Shown here piece after piece: positions 39,973 to 48,819 of a stretch of 64,000 bases of DNA; the first letter of the stretch is position 1, and each line of letters begins with the position of its first letter. Below the pieces are notes generated by a model. It was not told where the DNA came from. It did not search any database and was given only the letters and a program-made list of their open reading frames with translations. The position numbers and the translations under genes were made by a program. The stretch spans positions 1 through 64,000 of the forward strand of contig DATNQN010000080.1 of the NCBI GenBank assembly GCA_036703985.1, given 5' to 3'. This stretch comes from Leptolyngbyaceae cyanobacterium. GTDB lineage: Bacteria > Cyanobacteriota > Cyanobacteriia > Cyanobacteriales > Aerosakkonemataceae.

Positions 39973-42900
39973 ATGCCATTTACTAAAACTCGTGCTTTTT
40001 TATTTTCTTGTTTAGCAGTAGCATTTTTTCTTCCTTGGGGAGTTACTGCACAACCGATCGCACCAGCGCCCGACGGTACTGGCACGATCGTCAATCCAAA
40101 CGGTAACCGTTTTGACATCAGGGGCGGTACTAAATCCGGAGATGGAACCAATTTATTTCACAGTTTTACCGACTTCGGCTTAAATTCGGGAGAAATTGCG
40201 AATTTTATCGCTCAACCTAATATTTTAAATATTCTGGCACGAGTAAGCGGCGGAAACGTTTCTTATATAAATGGTCTTATTCAAGTTACCGGCGCGAATG
40301 CCAACTTATATTTAATGAATCCATCTGGCATTGTATTTGGGACAAATGCCAGTTTAAACGTACCTGCTGGTTTCATGGCAACTACTGCTAATGGAATAGG
40401 CTTTGGTAATAATTGGTTTAATGGGTTAGGTACGAATAATTATGCTGAATCGATCGGAAAACCGAGTAGTTTTGCGTTTACAATGCAGCAACCTGCAAGT
40501 ATTATCAATTCTGGAAATTTGTCAGTAGGAATCGGTCGCGATTTATCCTTAATTGGCGGTACGGTAATCAATACGGGAACATTATCAGCACCATCAGGCA
40601 ATATCACCGTTGCAGCAGTACCGGGGGAAAGCTTGGTGCGGTTGGGTCAATCGGGATATTTACTAAGTTTAGAAATTAATGCGATCGCAAATCATCCAAC
40701 TCAACCGAATAACTGGACATTACCCATAATTTCCTTACCTCAAATGTTAACGGGAGGAACTGCAAATCATGCCACAGGAGTGATAGTTAATTCAGATGGT
40801 AGCGTACAACTAACAGGTTCCGGTATTCGCTTAAACCAAGATGGCAATACGGTAATTGCTTCCGGTAACTTGCAAACTACGGGGGAAACTGGCGGTCAAA
40901 TTAATATTTTGGGTGGCAAAGTTGGCATAGTTAATGCCAATATTAATGCTGCTGGCAATTTCGGTGGCGGCGACGTGCGAATTGGTGGCGATTATAAAGG
41001 TGAGGGTAAAATCCCAAATGCTTTGCAAACTTTTGTAAGTAAAGATTCGGTAATTAATGCCGATGCTTTACTCAATGGTAATGGTGGTAGAGTAATCGTT
41101 TGGGCAGATAAAAATAACCGATTTTTGGGTAATATTACGGCGCGTGGGGGAATTTTTTCTGGTGATGGTGGTTTTGTAGAAGTATCGGGAAAAGAGTTTT
41201 TGGATTTCCGGGGAAATGTGAATACTCTTGCACCAAACGGTACTCCAGGGATGCTTTTACTCGATCCCACAGATATCATCGTCCAAAATGAAGCGGGATC
41301 TTTTACTGATTTAACGCAAGTAGATCAATTTTCCGATCCTGATAACGGGGCAAATACAATTAATGTTGCTTTAATTAATAATGCTGCTACTAATGTTACT
41401 TTGCAAGCAACTAATCGAATTGTTTTTAACGGTTCGGTTAATATTACTAATTCTGGAGTGGGTCTGACTGCGGAAGCTGGCAAACAAATTAACGTAAATA
41501 ATAGTATTACTACTAATAATGGCGATATCAATCTGCGGACTCAAACTGGTAGTATTTTTGTAGATGCACCGATATCTTCTGGAATGGGAAATATTTCTCT
41601 GTATGGAAATAGCAACATTTCTTCAGGGGTTAATATTGGGATTTCGGGTTCGATTACCACGACTAGCGGTAGCATCGCGCTAAACGGAACTACCACGGTG
41701 GGAGATGGTATCCGCAGTGATGGTTTTATATCTTCGGGAACTGGCAATATTAGCTTAATTGGTAATTCAAGTGATGGGAGAGGTTTATTTTTATCGGGAA
41801 ATATTACTTCCGAAGGTGGCAATATTAATCTAACAGGTAATAGTAAGGGTTACGATCGCGGTATTTCAGCTATTGGTTCGATTAATTCCGGCGGCGGTGA
41901 TATTAATTTAATTGGGACTAGCATTAATGAAAAAGGTATTGCTGTTATCCAAGGTATTAATTCTGGTGGCGGTGATATTCGGATTGAGGGAAATAGTACT
42001 AACGATGCTAATAATGGCATCTTTTTATATTTGCAACCGATTAACTCTAATGGTGGAGATATTACGATAATTGGTAATTCTGGTGGGGTTAATCTTGATG
42101 CTTCGATCGCATCTGGAGGTGGCAAAATCGCGATTTCTGGAAACAGCAGTAATTTTGATGGTGTAAACGTTCAAAAACCGATCGAATCGAGTGGCGGCGA
42201 GATTACCATTACTGGTACTAGTAATAATAGTAACGGAATTGCGATCGCTAGTACTAGTAGTAATAGTAACGGAATTTCGATCGCAAATTCCATTACTGCC
42301 AATAGTGGAAATATTACCCTCACTGCCGATCGCATTAATCTTGACCCTGGTGGTTCTCCTTCCCTCAAGGGTAGCGGTAATCTATTATTGCAACCTGTTA
42401 CTCCCGAACTAACTTTAGAAATTGGCGGAACTAGCGATGCCAAGACAACTTTTATTAATGCCAACGAACTGGCAAAATTAACACCTGGTTTTGCTTCGAT
42501 TACCATCGGTAGAGACAATAGTAGCGGTGCCATTAACTTATTGGGAGATGTAACTTTTAATGACCCGGTTACTTTGCGATCGCCTGTTAATGCTGGTTCT
42601 ATTAATGCTAACGGTTTTACGATTACCGGATTAGATAATGCTTCCCTTAACTTAGTCGCCAATCAAAATATAGCTATTGGTAACATCAAAGCATTGGGAA
42701 ATAATGTCAATATTTCCGGCGCAAATGTCACGGTTGGCGATATCGATACGGGAGATTCCCTTACTCAACCAGCGGGAAATGTAGCAATCACAGCTACTAC
42801 TGGTAATCTCACTGCTGGTAATATTACTACCAACGCTAATGATGATTTTTCCGGCGATTATCAATTTATTAATGCTGGCAAAGTTAATTTATCCGCTCCT

Positions 42901-45900
42901 TCTGGCAGTATAAAAGCAGGAGATATTAGTGCTTTTGCTTACGTGACGGGTTTTTATAGCGGAGATGGCGGTGCAATTACCGTCACCGCCAATGGAGATA
43001 TTCAAATTAATAATATTAATGCTCTTAGCGGTGGTGGATTTGGCGGAGAAATTAACCTTACCAGTAACAATGGTTCGATTAGTACTGGTAACTTGCAATC
43101 TCTTTCTTATGCTGGTGGTGGCGGTAGAAACGTTACTCTGACAGCAAGTAATGGCAACATCACCACGGGAAATATTGAAGCTTATGGGAATTTTACCAGT
43201 ATAGGTGGAGAAGTTACTCTTAATGCTGCTACTGGCAAAATTTCGATCGGTGATATTACATCTGATAATAATAATATCAATTTAAATGGAGCGGTTATTC
43301 TCGATCGCAATATTTCTGTTAGCAACCGCAACACCTCTGGCAACGTTAATTTTAATGGTTTAGTTGATGGTAATTACGACCTGAAAATTATCGCGGGTAA
43401 CGGTAATGTCAACTTTGCAAATACAGTAGGTAACACCATTAACTTAGGAAATATCACGGTTAATTCTACGGGGATAACTAAATTTAGTAATTCGGTTAAT
43501 GCGACTAGTTTAACTACTGACGATGGAGGAAAGACGCAACTCAACGGTAACGTTAATACTAGTGGAAGCGGCGGACAAAATTATGGCGATTCTCTGATAT
43601 TAAATGGCAATATTACTCTCACTGGTAATGAAATCAGCTTTAGTAAAACAGTTTCCGGTACAGGCGATCTCACTTTGCAACCTTTTACTTCTACACAAGC
43701 GATCGCAATTGCTGGTGCAGAAGATCTTGGTGCGGAAACGTTAGATTTAACCTTTACGGATTTGAACGCTTTAGCAGATGGTTTTAGCAGCATTACCATT
43801 GGCAGAAAAAATAGCAGTGGTGCAATTACTGCTGCTGGTAACGTTACTTTTAAAGACCCAGTAACGCTACAATCTCCTGAAGGTGTTGGTTCGATCGATA
43901 CTAGTAATTATACGCTAACAGGAGAAAGCAACACTACTATTAATTTGCTAGCAAATCAGGATATCATCACCAGCGATATTACCAATTTCGGTCGAGAAAT
44001 TAAGATAACTAGTACGAATGGAAATATCAATACTAGTAAGGGAAATATTAATGCTAGCAATTCTTTAGGTAATGGTGGAACGATCGCCTTAAGTGCTAGG
44101 GGTAACGTTATTACAAAAAATGTCAATGCAAACTCTATTGGCGCGAGCAGTCAAGGTAATCAAGGTGGTAAGATTACCATTACTAGTACTGAAGGCTCGA
44201 TCGATACTAACAAAGGCATTTTAGATTCCGGTTCTTCCGTCATTTCTGATTCTATTAGCGGGAAGGGAGGAGAAATTTTTCTAGAAGCAAAAGGCGATAT
44301 TATTACCAGTCATCTATGGTCTCATAGCAACAATCTTGGTAATAGCGGTAACATCACTATTATCAGTCAAGAAGGTAAAATTGATACGACAGCAGGAGAT
44401 TTGCGATCGGGTTTTACTACTAAAGGAAATGCAGGCGCAATTCGCTTAGAAGCAAAAAGCGATATCCGCACCGGAACTTTATCTGCTGATACCGATGGCG
44501 CTGGTAAAGGAGGAGATATTACCCTCAAAAGTACAGAGGGAGGAATTGACACATCGGCTGGGATTTTAGACGCTGATTCTAATAGCGGAGATGGCGGAAA
44601 TATCGCTTTTAATGCTAATGCCGATATTACCACGGGTAGCATGAATTCTCGTGCTAATCAAGGAAATAGCGGCATCATTACTATTACTAGTAGTAGCGGT
44701 AATATTAATACCAGTCAAGGCAACTTAACAACAAGTTCGACTAATGGTAATGGTGGCGATGTAAATATCGAAGCTGCCAACAAAGTTACTACTGGCAATA
44801 TTAATTCTTCAGCGGGTGGCAATGGTAAAGCAGGCAATATAACCATTACCAGTAAAACGGCAGAAATTCAGGCAAAATCGGGTATTTTAGATACTACTTC
44901 TAATAGTGGAAATGCCGGAGAAGTTACTCTTTCTGCTCCCAATAAAATTACTGCTTTTGGCATTAACTCCACTGGCATAAGCGGTACTGGAAATATTAAC
45001 ATAACCAGCAATCAAATTCAATTTACTGGTGCTGCTAATTCAGTCCGAGGTAAAAGCGAAATTTTACTTCAACCTTTTACAAGTAGCCAAAACTTAGATA
45101 TTAGTGTTCAAGATTTTGCAGTATTAGCAGATGGATTTACTTCGATTACTGTTGGTAGAATTGATGGCAGCGGCGTAATTAAATTTAATAATCCCCTGAC
45201 TTTCAAAGATCCGGTCACAATTCAATCTCCTAATGGCTCAATTGCAGTTAATGGTGCTTTGAAAGGAGAAGACAACGCATCAATTACTTTCACGGGAAAC
45301 AGTAATCTCAATGCAGATGTCACTACTGCTAATCAAAATATTAATATCAACGGTAACACCGCGATCGGGAATAATATTACTCTTAGCACTGGTAGCACTT
45401 CTGGTGGTAATATTACCGTTAACGGTACAATTGATGGCGATCGAGACTTAACTTTAGAAACAGGTAACGGCGATATTGTTGTCAATGGCAATATTGGTAG
45501 CAATGCTCAGCTAGGTAATTTGAATGTTAAAAGCGTCAATAACCTAGAAACTGGTGCAATTACTGCTGCAAGCATCGTTCAATCAGCAGGTAGTGGAACT
45601 ACTAATTTTAAAGGAGCAATTAATACCAATAGCAGCAGCGGAATTAATTTAACAGGAAATAACTTTTCTTTGATTAGTCCGGTGAATGTTAGCAATCAAG
45701 GTAATGTCACCATTAACAACGTTGGCACTCTGAATATTGGTGCGGAAGCCGATATTAATATAGATGGTGCATTCAATCAAATTGGCAGCGGACAAGTTAT
45801 CGCTGCTGGAGATATTACCACTGCAAATAAAGATATCAGTTTTAATAGTGCGGTTACTATTAACGGTAATGTTAATTTTAGTTTGGGAACGGCGACAATT

Positions 45901-48819
45901 AGCTTTGGTTCTACTTTAGCGATCGCAAATAACCCCCTCGCTTTAACGGCAGGTGAAATAGATTTTACGGGAGCGGTTACTGGGACGAATCAACTAATAT
46001 TGCAACCTGCCAATCCAAATCAAAATATTTTTGTTGCTTCGACCGATAACAATACAGATGCTTTAGATTTAACTGCTGCTGAAATTAATGCTTTACAAGG
46101 TAATTTTAGCTCGATTACGATTGGCAGAACTGATTCGGCAGGTGTTATTAATATTGCTGCTGATGTTAATTTCTTATCACCCGTTACTATTCAGTCTCCA
46201 GCCAATTCTGGTTCTATTAAGGCTGTGGGAGAAATTAGCACTAAAGGCACTTCAATAGATTTAAAAGCAACTAATATCGCTACTGGCAATATAATATCGA
46301 ATGGTGGAAATATTAATCTTTTTAACAATAACGGTAGTATCGTTACCGGAAATATTGATGCCAGTTCTATCGACTCTAATGGGGGAAATGTTGCTTTAAC
46401 TGCTGTTGGTAAAATTACTAGCGGTAATATTACTACCGAATCTAATAGTTTGGCTGGTGGAAATATTACGGTTCAAAGTGAAAATGGTGCAATCCAAACA
46501 GGTCACTTAACGGCAAAAGGAAATACCCAAGGCGGAAAAATTTCCGTGATAACGCCGATTCAGATTAATAGTGGGAAAATTAACTCTAGTGCCATCATCG
46601 GGGATGGAGGCAATGTTATTCTCGATCCCGCAGGTGATATCGAAATTGATTACATTAATGCACAAGGAGGAACGGCGGGTAAAGGGGGAATTGTTGATAT
46701 TACAACTGCCAGATTTTTCCGTGCCAAAAGTAGTTTTACAGACCGCAACGGTGTAATTTCAAGTATTTCTACAGCGGGAGAAACAGGGGGAGGCGCGATC
46801 GCAATTCGACATGGCGGTGGGCCAAATATCGCTTTCAACGTGGCCGGTGACGCCACAACTAACGGTACGGTTGGCAATATTACCACTGGAATTGGGTCAG
46901 AACAAACGGTAAAAGCAGGGTCTTATTTTGGCCCATTTAATCAGGGTCAAACACAAGTGATCACTGAAGGCGCACCACCACCCGTAGACAATCCACCACC
47001 AGTAGACAATCCACCACCCGTGGACAATCCACCACCAGTAGACAATCCACCACCAGTAGACAATCCACCACCAGTAGACAATCCGCCACCAGTCGATAAT
47101 CCGCCACCAGTAGACAATCCACCACCAGTAGACAATCCGCCACCAGTCGATAATCCGCCACCTGTTGATAATCCGCCACCCGTGGACAATCCGCCACCCG
47201 TGGACAATCCGCCACCAGTCGATAATCCACCACCAGTAGACAATCCACCACCCGTGGACAATCCACCGCCAGTCGATAATCCACCACCAGTAGACAATCC
47301 ACCACCAGTAGACAATCCACCACCAGTAGACAATCCGCCACCAGTCGATAATCCGCCACCAGTCGATAATCCGCCACCAGTCGATAATCCACCACCCGTG
47401 GACAATCCACCACCAGTCGATAATCCACCACCGTCCATATCATTAAATGACCAAACGATAATTGCTACAGACTTGGAGGGTATTAATATTTTCCCCGGAA
47501 AGATAGATTATGCAGGTGCGATCGCGAGAAGTTCTCTTGATACAACTGGTGTATTGCGAGATTACATTATCAATTCCCTGCAAAGAGGTAACTTAGAGCT
47601 TGCGGTAACTCAAATCGAACAGTTGAGACAGCAGGAATATGAAAATTACTTTGAGGAAAGTTTGCCTTTATACAGTGAAACGTCCTTGTCCGTCGAACAA
47701 ATTCAAAATATCCTCAGACGAGTAGCCCACCGTCCCGGCAAAAAACCAGCGATTCTTTATGTATTTGCGCGATCGCAACAATTAGACTTAATATTGGTCA
47801 CTCCCTCTGGCGCTCCCATTTACCGTAGCGTACCGGAAGCCGATCGCAATACCTTAATGAAAGTAGTATCGGAATATCGATCGCAAGTCACCGATCCCAA
47901 CAAAACACACACCACCAGTTATCTTTCATCATCTCAACAACTATATAAATGGTTGATTGGGCCGATCGAATCTGAATTGCAATCTCAAGGAATTCAAACA
48001 ATCGCTTTTTCCTTAGATACAGGATTAAGAGCAATCCCGTTAGCCGCTCTCCACGATGGCAACAAGTTTTTAGTAGAAAAATACGGACTCGGTTTAATTC
48101 CCAGCGTTAACTTAGTTGATAATCGTTACGAAAACATTACAAAATTTCAAGTCCTCGCAATGGGAGCTTCTCAATTTACTAATTTAAACGCCTTACCTGC
48201 CGTACCAGTAGAGATATCTACCATTGCCAAAACAATCTGGAAAGGTAAATCATTTTTAAACGAAACATTTACTTTATCCAACCTCAAATCTCAACGAACA
48301 AAAGAACCATTTGGCATTATTCACTTAGCAACTCATGCCGAATTTCGCCCCGGAAAACCCAACAACTCATACATCCAACTTTGGAATTCCCAATTAGAAT
48401 TAGGGCAATTAAGACAGATGGGCTGGAATAACCCAACTGTAGAACTATTAGTATTAAGCGCTTGTCGAACTGCCGTCGGAGATGACAACGCCGAATTAGG
48501 TTTTGCAGGTTTAGCAGTCTCAGCAGGCGTAAAATCTGCCTTAGCTAGTTTGTGGTATGTATCCGATCAAGGTACCTTAGCATTAATGGCAGAATTTTAT
48601 CAACAATTGAAAGATTCACCCATCAAATCACAAGCATTACAACAAGCACAAATTGCCATGATCGAAGGAAAAGTTCGCATCGAAAACGGTAAATTAATCG
48701 GCCTAATTTCTGAGCCACAAACTATTAATTTACCATCAGAATTAGCTAATTTAGGAAATTACCAACTTTCTCATCCTTATTATTGGGCAGGTTTTACTAT
48801 GATTGGCAGCCCTTGGTAA
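39973..48819 (+). CDS. Giant two-partner-secretion exoprotein with C-terminal CHAT protease domain
   Basis: About 2948 residues. A signal peptide (FLFSCLAVAFFLPWGVTAQP) is followed by a filamentous-haemagglutinin TPS domain (about 30-150; NPNGNRFDIRGG, FHSFTDFGLNSGEIANF, LMNPSGIVFGTNASL), which directs export through a TpsB pore. A long beta-helix region rich in G, N, S, T and I follows, with four copies of a LLQP...SSITIGR...FKDPVT block. Residues 2335-2484 are 25 PPPVDN units. The end is a CHAT (caspase/separase-like) domain with His2788 in HLATHAEF and Cys2831 in LSACRTAVGDD. No TpsB gene is in the window. I start at ATG 39973; a TTG at 39967 is also in frame. Substrate unknown; the combination is known from other cyanobacteria but not functionally explained. 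Confidence 0.92.
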   Translation: MPFTKTRAFLFSCLAVAFFLPWGVTAQPIAPAPDGTGTIVNPNGNRFDIRGGTKSGDGTNLFHSFTDFGLNSGEIANFIAQPNILNILARVSGGNVSYINGLIQVTGANANLYLMNPSGIVFGTNASLNVPAGFMATTANGIGFGNNWFNGLGTNNYAESIGKPSSFAFTMQQPASIINSGNLSVGIGRDLSLIGGTVINTGTLSAPSGNITVAAVPGESLVRLGQSGYLLSLEINAIANHPTQPNNWTLPIISLPQMLTGGTANHATGVIVNSDGSVQLTGSGIRLNQDGNTVIASGNLQTTGETGGQINILGGKVGIVNANINAAGNFGGGDVRIGGDYKGEGKIPNALQTFVSKDSVINADALLNGNGGRVIVWADKNNRFLGNITARGGIFSGDGGFVEVSGKEFLDFRGNVNTLAPNGTPGMLLLDPTDIIVQNEAGSFTDLTQVDQFSDPDNGANTINVALINNAATNVTLQATNRIVFNGSVNITNSGVGLTAEAGKQINVNNSITTNNGDINLRTQTGSIFVDAPISSGMGNISLYGNSNISSGVNIGISGSITTTSGSIALNGTTTVGDGIRSDGFISSGTGNISLIGNSSDGRGLFLSGNITSEGGNINLTGNSKGYDRGISAIGSINSGGGDINLIGTSINEKGIAVIQGINSGGGDIRIEGNSTNDANNGIFLYLQPINSNGGDITIIGNSGGVNLDASIASGGGKIAISGNSSNFDGVNVQKPIESSGGEITITGTSNNSNGIAIASTSSNSNGISIANSITANSGNITLTADRINLDPGGSPSLKGSGNLLLQPVTPELTLEIGGTSDAKTTFINANELAKLTPGFASITIGRDNSSGAINLLGDVTFNDPVTLRSPVNAGSINANGFTITGLDNASLNLVANQNIAIGNIKALGNNVNISGANVTVGDIDTGDSLTQPAGNVAITATTGNLTAGNITTNANDDFSGDYQFINAGKVNLSAPSGSIKAGDISAFAYVTGFYSGDGGAITVTANGDIQINNINALSGGGFGGEINLTSNNGSISTGNLQSLSYAGGGGRNVTLTASNGNITTGNIEAYGNFTSIGGEVTLNAATGKISIGDITSDNNNINLNGAVILDRNISVSNRNTSGNVNFNGLVDGNYDLKIIAGNGNVNFANTVGNTINLGNITVNSTGITKFSNSVNATSLTTDDGGKTQLNGNVNTSGSGGQNYGDSLILNGNITLTGNEISFSKTVSGTGDLTLQPFTSTQAIAIAGAEDLGAETLDLTFTDLNALADGFSSITIGRKNSSGAITAAGNVTFKDPVTLQSPEGVGSIDTSNYTLTGESNTTINLLANQDIITSDITNFGREIKITSTNGNINTSKGNINASNSLGNGGTIALSARGNVITKNVNANSIGASSQGNQGGKITITSTEGSIDTNKGILDSGSSVISDSISGKGGEIFLEAKGDIITSHLWSHSNNLGNSGNITIISQEGKIDTTAGDLRSGFTTKGNAGAIRLEAKSDIRTGTLSADTDGAGKGGDITLKSTEGGIDTSAGILDADSNSGDGGNIAFNANADITTGSMNSRANQGNSGIITITSSSGNINTSQGNLTTSSTNGNGGDVNIEAANKVTTGNINSSAGGNGKAGNITITSKTAEIQAKSGILDTTSNSGNAGEVTLSAPNKITAFGINSTGISGTGNINITSNQIQFTGAANSVRGKSEILLQPFTSSQNLDISVQDFAVLADGFTSITVGRIDGSGVIKFNNPLTFKDPVTIQSPNGSIAVNGALKGEDNASITFTGNSNLNADVTTANQNININGNTAIGNNITLSTGSTSGGNITVNGTIDGDRDLTLETGNGDIVVNGNIGSNAQLGNLNVKSVNNLETGAITAASIVQSAGSGTTNFKGAINTNSSSGINLTGNNFSLISPVNVSNQGNVTINNVGTLNIGAEADINIDGAFNQIGSGQVIAAGDITTANKDISFNSAVTINGNVNFSLGTATISFGSTLAIANNPLALTAGEIDFTGAVTGTNQLILQPANPNQNIFVASTDNNTDALDLTAAEINALQGNFSSITIGRTDSAGVINIAADVNFLSPVTIQSPANSGSIKAVGEISTKGTSIDLKATNIATGNIISNGGNINLFNNNGSIVTGNIDASSIDSNGGNVALTAVGKITSGNITTESNSLAGGNITVQSENGAIQTGHLTAKGNTQGGKISVITPIQINSGKINSSAIIGDGGNVILDPAGDIEIDYINAQGGTAGKGGIVDITTARFFRAKSSFTDRNGVISSISTAGETGGGAIAIRHGGGPNIAFNVAGDATTNGTVGNITTGIGSEQTVKAGSYFGPFNQGQTQVITEGAPPPVDNPPPVDNPPPVDNPPPVDNPPPVDNPPPVDNPPPVDNPPPVDNPPPVDNPPPVDNPPPVDNPPPVDNPPPVDNPPPVDNPPPVDNPPPVDNPPPVDNPPPVDNPPPVDNPPPVDNPPPVDNPPPVDNPPPVDNPPPVDNPPPVDNPPPSISLNDQTIIATDLEGINIFPGKIDYAGAIARSSLDTTGVLRDYIINSLQRGNLELAVTQIEQLRQQEYENYFEESLPLYSETSLSVEQIQNILRRVAHRPGKKPAILYVFARSQQLDLILVTPSGAPIYRSVPEADRNTLMKVVSEYRSQVTDPNKTHTTSYLSSSQQLYKWLIGPIESELQSQGIQTIAFSLDTGLRAIPLAALHDGNKFLVEKYGLGLIPSVNLVDNRYENITKFQVLAMGASQFTNLNALPAVPVEISTIAKTIWKGKSFLNETFTLSNLKSQRTKEPFGIIHLATHAEFRPGKPNNSYIQLWNSQLELGQLRQMGWNNPTVELLVLSACRTAVGDDNAELGFAGLAVSAGVKSALASLWYVSDQGTLALMAEFYQQLKDSPIKSQALQQAQIAMIEGKVRIENGKLIGLISEPQTINLPSELANLGNYQLSHPYYWAGFTMIGSPW
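46975..47424 (+). repeat. 25 tandem 18-bp units encoding PPPVDN
   Basis: Exactly 25 in-frame copies with no amino-acid variation but frequent synonymous changes (GTA/GTC/GTG/GTT, GAC/GAT, CCA/CCC/CCT/CCG). It makes a Pro-rich stalk between the beta-helix and the CHAT domain. The copy number is likely variable. Confidence 0.95.

What the first reader, a model, noticed from the sequence alone, without database searches (positions are those of the whole stretch)
39973..48819. Secreted haemagglutinin-type fibre tipped with a caspase-like CHAT domain
One protein joins a TPS export domain, a beta-helix long enough to project far from the cell, a 150-residue proline stalk and a protease domain with the His/Cys dyad intact. 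CHAT domains are usually cytoplasmic effectors of cell death or defence; placing one at the end of an exported fibre suggests contact-dependent action on another cell, self-processing at the surface, or release of a tip. No partner pore or immunity gene is adjacent, so if it is toxic the protection is elsewhere.
Basis: partly seen in the sequence, partly recalled or inferred. Interest (0 to 1): 0.65.

Follow-up and report, generated by a model that had tools for sequence, protein, structure and literature searches.

The report
Cyanobacterial surface fibre carrying a protease
A filamentous cyanobacterium makes a giant exported fibre that ends in its own caspase-like protease, and in cyanobacteria at large this protease line travels with the fibre-export machinery, which suggests it matures or releases the fibre rather than killing neighbouring cells.

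Summary
Observation confirmed: 39,973-48,819 (+) encodes 2,948 aa: signal peptide, TPS export domain, about 2,000-residue beta-helix, (PPPVDN)x25, intact CHAT protease (H2788/C2831). It is one of at least six TPS-CHAT fusions in this filamentous cyanobacterium and belongs to a cyanobacteria-wide family. His and Cys are invariant in 75/75 aligned relatives. The mature protein has exactly one cysteine, the catalytic one; 33 of 43 fused relatives show the same. The sister CHAT clade consists of separate TPR-CHAT proteins that appear exported and are encoded beside TPS exoprotein genes (11/11 resolvable here; 28/40 sampled elsewhere). TpsB pores adjoin 10 of 76 fusions and 19 of 82 split CHAT genes (about 0.4 expected each), including TpsA-TpsB-CHAT operons. 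All 44 of 60 genomes with the fusion clade have TpsB. So export is strongly supported, indirectly. Contact-dependent killing is not: the tip is invariant and no immunity gene recurs. Best reading: an exoprotein with its own clan CD maturation or release protease, like Bordetella FhaB or CdrA/LapG in logic, but with the protease fused or in the operon. Mechanism, cleavage site and CHAT location (periplasm or surface) are inferred. New variant of a known kind.

The parts
39973..48819 (+). TPS-CHAT fusion gene, 2,948 aa (alternative TTG start 39,967)
   Evidence: single ORF; Pfam TPS and CHAT
39973..40053 (+). signal peptide, residues 1-27 (MPFTKTRAFLFSCLAVAFFLPWGVTAQ), by inspection and a hydropathy heuristic
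   Evidence: sequence; hydropathy; N-termini of relatives for comparison
40081..40659 (+). TPS secretion domain with NPSG motif
   Evidence: Pfam PF05860 E 3e-38; model closest to EtpA, HMW1, HxuA and FHA secretion domains
40660..46974 (+). cysteine-free beta-helix shaft, period about 25 residues, Gly/Asn/Ile/Ser/Thr-rich
   Evidence: autocorrelation and composition; no Cys; the start of this region is modelled as beta-solenoid
46975..47424 (+). (PPPVDN)x25 proline-rich linker, no Lys or Arg
   Evidence: relatives have different, often Pro-rich linkers
47530..47934 (+). helical hairpin and first half of the separase/Craspase-like module, ahead of the Pfam CHAT match
   Evidence: AlphaFold model and VIA alignments starting near model residues 26-34
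47929..48810 (+). CHAT protease domain
   Evidence: Pfam PF12770 E 2e-69; fold search
48334..48336 (+). catalytic His2788
   Evidence: invariant 75/75; aligned in own-genome paralogues
48463..48465 (+). catalytic Cys2831, the only cysteine of the mature protein
   Evidence: invariant 75/75; cysteine positions 13 (signal peptide) and 2831 only

Best explanation
It is a two-partner-secretion (type Vb) exoprotein with a built-in clan CD cysteine protease. The N-terminal TPS domain docks on a TpsB pore (encoded elsewhere in this genome), and the beta-helix folds outside as a fibre of roughly 45 nm (estimate). The C-terminal CHAT domain, tethered by a long flexible proline-rich linker, is translocated last, or is held in the periplasm because it folds. 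It most likely cleaves its own or a sister TPS exoprotein to mature the fibre or switch it between anchored and released. In many cyanobacteria the same job would be done by a separate TPR-CHAT protein encoded next to TpsA and TpsB. Supported by sequence, conservation and gene order: architecture, export (indirectly), dyad conservation and coupling of this CHAT lineage to TPS genes. Inferred: that it is an active protease, its substrate, and where CHAT ends up.
For: H/C dyad invariant in 75/75 and present in every split-pair CHAT of this genome. The mature protein's only Cys is catalytic; 33/43 fused relatives likewise, 65 Cys in 70,523 residues against about 0.8 per 100 in other ORFs, and extra Cys mostly in close pairs, as expected for an exported protein in which only the catalytic Cys is kept. 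Split-pair CHATs form a clade (100/94) sister (96/95) to the fusion clade, and no CHAT outside these two clades adjoins a TPS gene in this genome. TPS next to the sister CHAT: 11/11 resolvable here (10 by the script against 0.85 expected), 28/40 loci in 20 other genomes. TpsB within 1.5 kb: 10/76 fusions, 0/30 short CHATs, 19/82 split CHATs; about 0.4 expected for the fusion and split sets. TpsA-TpsB-CHAT operon L233; TpsB 19 bp after a fusion in L224. All 44 genomes with the clade have TpsB. Precedents: FhaB, whose C-terminal prodomain stays in the periplasm and is proteolysed (PMC11077949); CdrA, whose periplasmic C-terminal tail is cut by LapG (PMC5422565).
Against: No cleavage has been shown, and no conserved cleavage motif exists in the linker or its junction with CHAT. 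The short exported CHATs of the same clade have no TPS domain and none adjoins a TpsB gene (0/30), so the lineage is not always TPS-bound. Co-occurrence of the clade with TpsB is confounded by phylogeny and genome size. Signal peptides were judged by a simple hydropathy rule.
Confidence: 0.45

Rival explanations
1. Surface-displayed protease: CHAT is fully exported, and the fibre holds it away from the cell to cut external proteins (of other cells or the matrix), in the manner of gingipains or the TPS-secreted protease LepA.
For: Fold similarity to gingipains, Z 18; long fibre and long linker; a TPS-secreted protease, LepA, is known (PMC5422565).
Against: The sister-clade CHATs carry no TPS export domain of their own and so should stay in the periplasm. 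Protein length varies from 897 to 3,582 aa, which is hard to explain if reach mattered.
Confidence: 0.2
2. Surface sensor: fibre engagement activates CHAT, which cuts a periplasmic signalling partner (anti-sigma factor or sensor kinase), turning surface contact into a response.
For: CHAT of the transmembrane anti-sigma factor DdvA is a close fold match (Z 20.6; E 3e-7 by profile). A subclade has operons DUF928 - TPS-CHAT - CHASE2 histidine kinase - response regulator. Craspase TPR-CHAT is switched on allosterically (PMC9729208).
Against: The signalling neighbours occur in few loci; the window gene has none.
Confidence: 0.2
3. Contact-dependent toxin: the CHAT tip enters and harms neighbouring cells, with immunity encoded elsewhere.
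For: TPS exoproteins of the CDI type carry C-terminal toxins (PMC5422565); CHAT proteases act in cell death in other systems (PMC9729208).
Against: The tip is always the same CHAT, dyad invariant 75/75; no conserved small neighbour gene; the same lineage occurs as free proteins in TPS operons; at least six copies in this genome without an immunity candidate.
Confidence: 0.05
4. CHAT has lost protease activity and serves as a plug, anchor or binding domain.
For: A folded C-terminal domain could stop translocation, as the FhaB prodomain does.
Against: Invariant His and Cys across 75 divergent sequences, and the catalytic Cys kept in a protein that otherwise avoids cysteine.
Confidence: 0.08

Closest known systems
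Bordetella FhaB/FHA (TPS exoprotein with C-terminal prodomain)
   Same: TPS domain, long beta-helix, proline-rich region next to the extreme C-terminal domain, TpsB-dependent export; the C-terminus is subject to regulated proteolysis (PMC11077949)
   Different: the FhaB C-terminus is a substrate, not a protease; its proteases (DegP, CtpA, SphB1) are encoded elsewhere
Pseudomonas CdrA / LapG
   Same: a TPS adhesin whose periplasmic C-terminal tail is cut by LapG to release the fibre (PMC5422565); LapG is a cysteine protease (my knowledge)
   Different: LapG is a separate protein of another protease family and is controlled by c-di-GMP; here the protease is a CHAT and is fused or in the operon
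Craspase TPR-CHAT (Csx29)
   Same: same fold over 342 residues, Z 29.8; same His/Cys dyad
   Different: CRISPR effector working inside the cell; this one is exported, lacks the long TPR part and has Leu2869 where Craspase has K670
Separase and gingipains (clan CD)
   Same: fold and dyad (Z 24 and 18); gingipains are also extracellular
   Different: the separase P1-Arg aspartate position aligns, by way of Craspase K670, with Leu2869, so Arg specificity is not supported
HetF (Anabaena), the CHAT name-giver
   Same: cyanobacterial membrane-associated CHAT protein, active-site-dependent (PMC8406250)
   Different: one TM segment, TPR, divisome partner; no TPS domain
MARTX cysteine protease domain (C80)
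   Same: clan CD protease built into a giant secreted protein for autoprocessing (PMC4357240)
   Different: different secretion system and family; leucine specificity, ligand-activated

Membership tests
TpsA exoprotein (type Vb secretion) | N-terminal TPS secretion domain after a signal peptide | tested here: met
   PF05860 E 3e-38; fold match to EtpA, HMW1, HxuA, FHA; signal peptide by hydropathy and inspection only
TpsA exoprotein (type Vb secretion) | beta-helical passenger | tested here: met
   modelled beta-solenoid at its start; period near 25 residues in the rest
TpsA exoprotein (type Vb secretion) | cognate TpsB pore | tested here: inconclusive
   three ShlB/POTRA_2 genes in the genome, and TpsB adjoins 10/76 family members elsewhere; but none adjoins the window gene and which one serves it is unknown
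CHAT protease (clan CD) | CHAT fold with His/Cys dyad | tested here: met
   PF12770 E 2e-69; Z 29.8 to Craspase TPR-CHAT; dyad invariant
CHAT protease (clan CD) | proteolytic activity | not testable with these tools
   needs biochemistry
CdiA contact-dependent inhibition | variable C-terminal toxin | tested here: not met
   the same CHAT at the C-terminus of all fused members examined
CdiA contact-dependent inhibition | adjacent immunity gene | tested here: not met
   no recurring neighbour of that kind across the 84 loci compared
FhaB-like processing | C-terminal domain retained in the periplasm and processed | not testable with these tools
   only the order beta-helix, proline-rich region, conserved C-terminal domain is shared

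The most novel reading that the evidence does not exclude
Cyanobacteria use a three-partner version of two-partner secretion: TpsA fibre, TpsB pore and a dedicated exported separase-like protease (CHAT), either as a third gene or fused to the fibre. In the fusion the fibre stands outside, the proline linker runs through the pore and the folded CHAT stays in the periplasm as plug and timed release protease.
Probability: 0.28. Interest if true: 0.8.

Novelty: new variant of a known kind. Interest (0 to 1): 0.6.

Why it matters
Type Vb exoproteins are known to be matured by proteases encoded elsewhere; a review states that maturation protease genes appear not to be part of TPS operons (PMC5422565). 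Here a caspase/separase-type protease lineage is wired to the pathway, by operon and by fusion, across much of the Cyanobacteria. If it processes the fibres, it explains many of the abundant, otherwise unexplained CHAT genes of filamentous cyanobacteria (41 CHAT matches in this genome) as envelope proteases rather than death or defence effectors, and gives a testable handle on how these organisms control surface fibres.

Tried and rejected
CDI toxin with immunity gene: no conserved neighbour, invariant tip. Defence system: only weak PADLOC matches (BovA, E 9e-6), no defence neighbours. Arg/Lys specificity from an S1 aspartate: I first suspected invariant D2865, but the Craspase alignment places the separase D2151/K670 position at Leu2869, so I dropped it. 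A conserved autocleavage motif in the linker: none found. Sequence search of solved structures with the fusion CHATs alone found nothing useful; a broader CHAT profile found Craspase, DdvA and, at weak E-values, separase. L146 first looked as if it lacked the Cys motif; it reads LSACRS, Cys present. Literature: no paper in the held library joins CHAT with two-partner secretion or haemagglutinin; the wider search listed no such paper among the 15 shown.

Full report
WHAT IS THERE. The window gene is one open frame, TTG 39967 or ATG 39973 to stop 48819. It holds a signal peptide, a TPS secretion domain (E 3e-38) and a C-terminal CHAT domain (E 2e-69). Between them lies a Gly/Asn/Ile-rich shaft with a period near 25 residues and (PPPVDN)x25. 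Neighbours are ordinary: UvrC, pentapeptide proteins, Uma2, an AcrB-type pump. The fibre length of about 45 nm is my estimate (about 2,300 residues at 25 per coil and 0.48 nm per coil).

NOT UNIQUE HERE. The genome (7.68 Mb, 151 contigs) has 41 CHAT matches, 35 TPS matches and three TpsB genes. At least six genes are TPS-CHAT fusions or cut ones: C80 (window), C84, C137, C145, C30 and C142, the last cut by its contig end but placed inside the fusion TPS clade. Eleven further CHAT genes sit beside a TPS gene. By script, 10 of 35 CHAT-only genes lie within 600 bp of a TPS gene, against 0.85 expected and at most 5 in 2,000 random draws; the eleventh was cut by my fetch boundary.

FAMILY. A scan of genome contigs gave 78 loci, all cyanobacterial, mostly Oscillatoriales; 43 have TPS and CHAT in one ORF, 897-3,582 aa in the 40 measured, often with a proline-rich linker of differing sequence. 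Others are cut by contig ends, look frameshifted (L075, L098, L101, L131, L137, L151) or are short signal-peptide CHATs. In 75 aligned members the catalytic His and Cys are invariant. The fusion CHATs form a clade (99/99), which includes the short exported CHATs; its sister (96/95) is the clade of split-pair TPR-CHATs (100/94). Fusion TPS domains also form their own clade (97/100, bootstrap not fully settled).

EXPORT. Four lines, none a direct measurement. (1) The TPS domain fold matches EtpA, HMW1, HxuA and FHA. (2) Cysteine: the mature window protein has one, C2831. In 43 fused relatives there are 65 Cys in 70,523 residues, 33 proteins have exactly one, and where there are more they come mostly as near neighbours in pairs, as disulfides would. 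In the C84 paralogue several of its Cys lie in an N-terminal glycosyltransferase that should be cytoplasmic. (3) TpsB adjacency: 10 of 76 fusions, none of 30 short CHATs, 19 of 82 split CHATs, with about 0.4 expected for the fusion and for the split set under a rough model of three TpsB per 5.5 Mb. Nine of the ten were read out with TPS and CHAT in the same ORF; in L223 the ORF runs to the contig start and its TPS domain was not seen. (4) All 44 of 60 genomes with the clade have TpsB, and the 11 genomes without TpsB lack the clade, Fisher p 1e-8 before any correction for phylogeny.

COUPLING OF CHAT TO TPS. Beyond the fusion, the sister TPR-CHATs lie within two ORFs of a TPS gene in 28 of 40 loci from 20 genomes (loci were the best-scoring ones, not a random sample, and in one of them, L209, the neighbour is itself a TPS-CHAT fusion). 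L233 reads TpsA-TpsB-CHAT with gaps of 50 and 79 bp; L224 has a fusion followed 19 bp later by TpsB; L234 has TPS and TpsB in one polypeptide followed by an overlapping CHAT gene. Fusion and operon are two forms of linkage, so a shared function is likely.

FOLD AND CHEMISTRY. The CHAT region (pLDDT 90) covers the double-domain module of Craspase TPR-CHAT (Z 29.8, rmsd 3.1, 342 residues), separase (Z 24), DdvA (Z 20.6) and gingipains (Z 18). P1 specificity is open: the separase D2151 position, K670 in Craspase (PMC9729208), aligns with invariant Leu2869.

HOW IT PROBABLY WORKS. TPS export runs N to C, so the C-terminal CHAT crosses last or stays behind. Split CHATs seem to have a signal peptide but no TPS domain and should act in the periplasm. 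This, with the known logic of FhaB (C-terminal prodomain held in the periplasm, proteolysis by DegP, CtpA and SphB1; PMC11077949) and CdrA (periplasmic tail cut by LapG; PMC5422565), makes a maturation or release protease the simplest reading. It is not shown: there is no conserved cut site and no activity data. A surface protease or a signalling protease (CHASE2 kinase operons in a subclade; DdvA fold) remain possible. A contact toxin is unlikely.

NOVELTY. The parts are known kinds. The coupling of a separase-like protease to TPS by fusion and operon, class-wide, was not found in the papers I could search, which omit most subscription journals; domain databases may already list the architecture.

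Noticed in passing
own genome C84:100934-111328 (L062); L145; L146: Three fusion proteins begin with a GT2 glycosyltransferase (Pfam E 5e-33 in C84, 3e-32 in L145; L146 by sequence likeness only) in frame before the signal-like segment, TPS, helix and CHAT. In the stretch checked just before TPS, L146 has no ATG and C84 only one (residue 223), so the fusion looks real.
   Followed up: partly
L234:2797-7122: A single 1,441-aa polypeptide holds a TPS domain and a complete POTRA_2/ShlB pore (TpsA and TpsB in one), followed by an overlapping CHAT gene.
   Followed up: partly
L108, L122, L093, L113: A subclade has TPS-CHAT followed by a CHASE2 sensor histidine kinase and a response-regulator kinase; in L108 and L122 a DUF928 gene overlaps the start.
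   Followed up: partly
L081, L082, L084, L087, L129: In another subclade a small pterin-dehydratase-like gene precedes TPS-CHAT (overlapping it in several) and an Lnt-like acyltransferase gene follows; identities by eye only.
   Followed up: no
own genome C20, C52, C56, C67, C71, C91: Other CHAT clades not linked to TPS also show signal-peptide-like starts and few cysteines, so most CHAT proteins of this genome may be exported.
   Followed up: partly
L075, L098, L101, L131, L137, L151: TPS and CHAT parts lie in different frames or are split by stops: pseudogenes, sequencing errors or genuine splits; not resolved.
   Followed up: no
window 46975-47424: The 18-bp repeat coding for PPPVDN uses nine codon variants in 25 copies, so it is not a simple array of identical units.
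   Followed up: no
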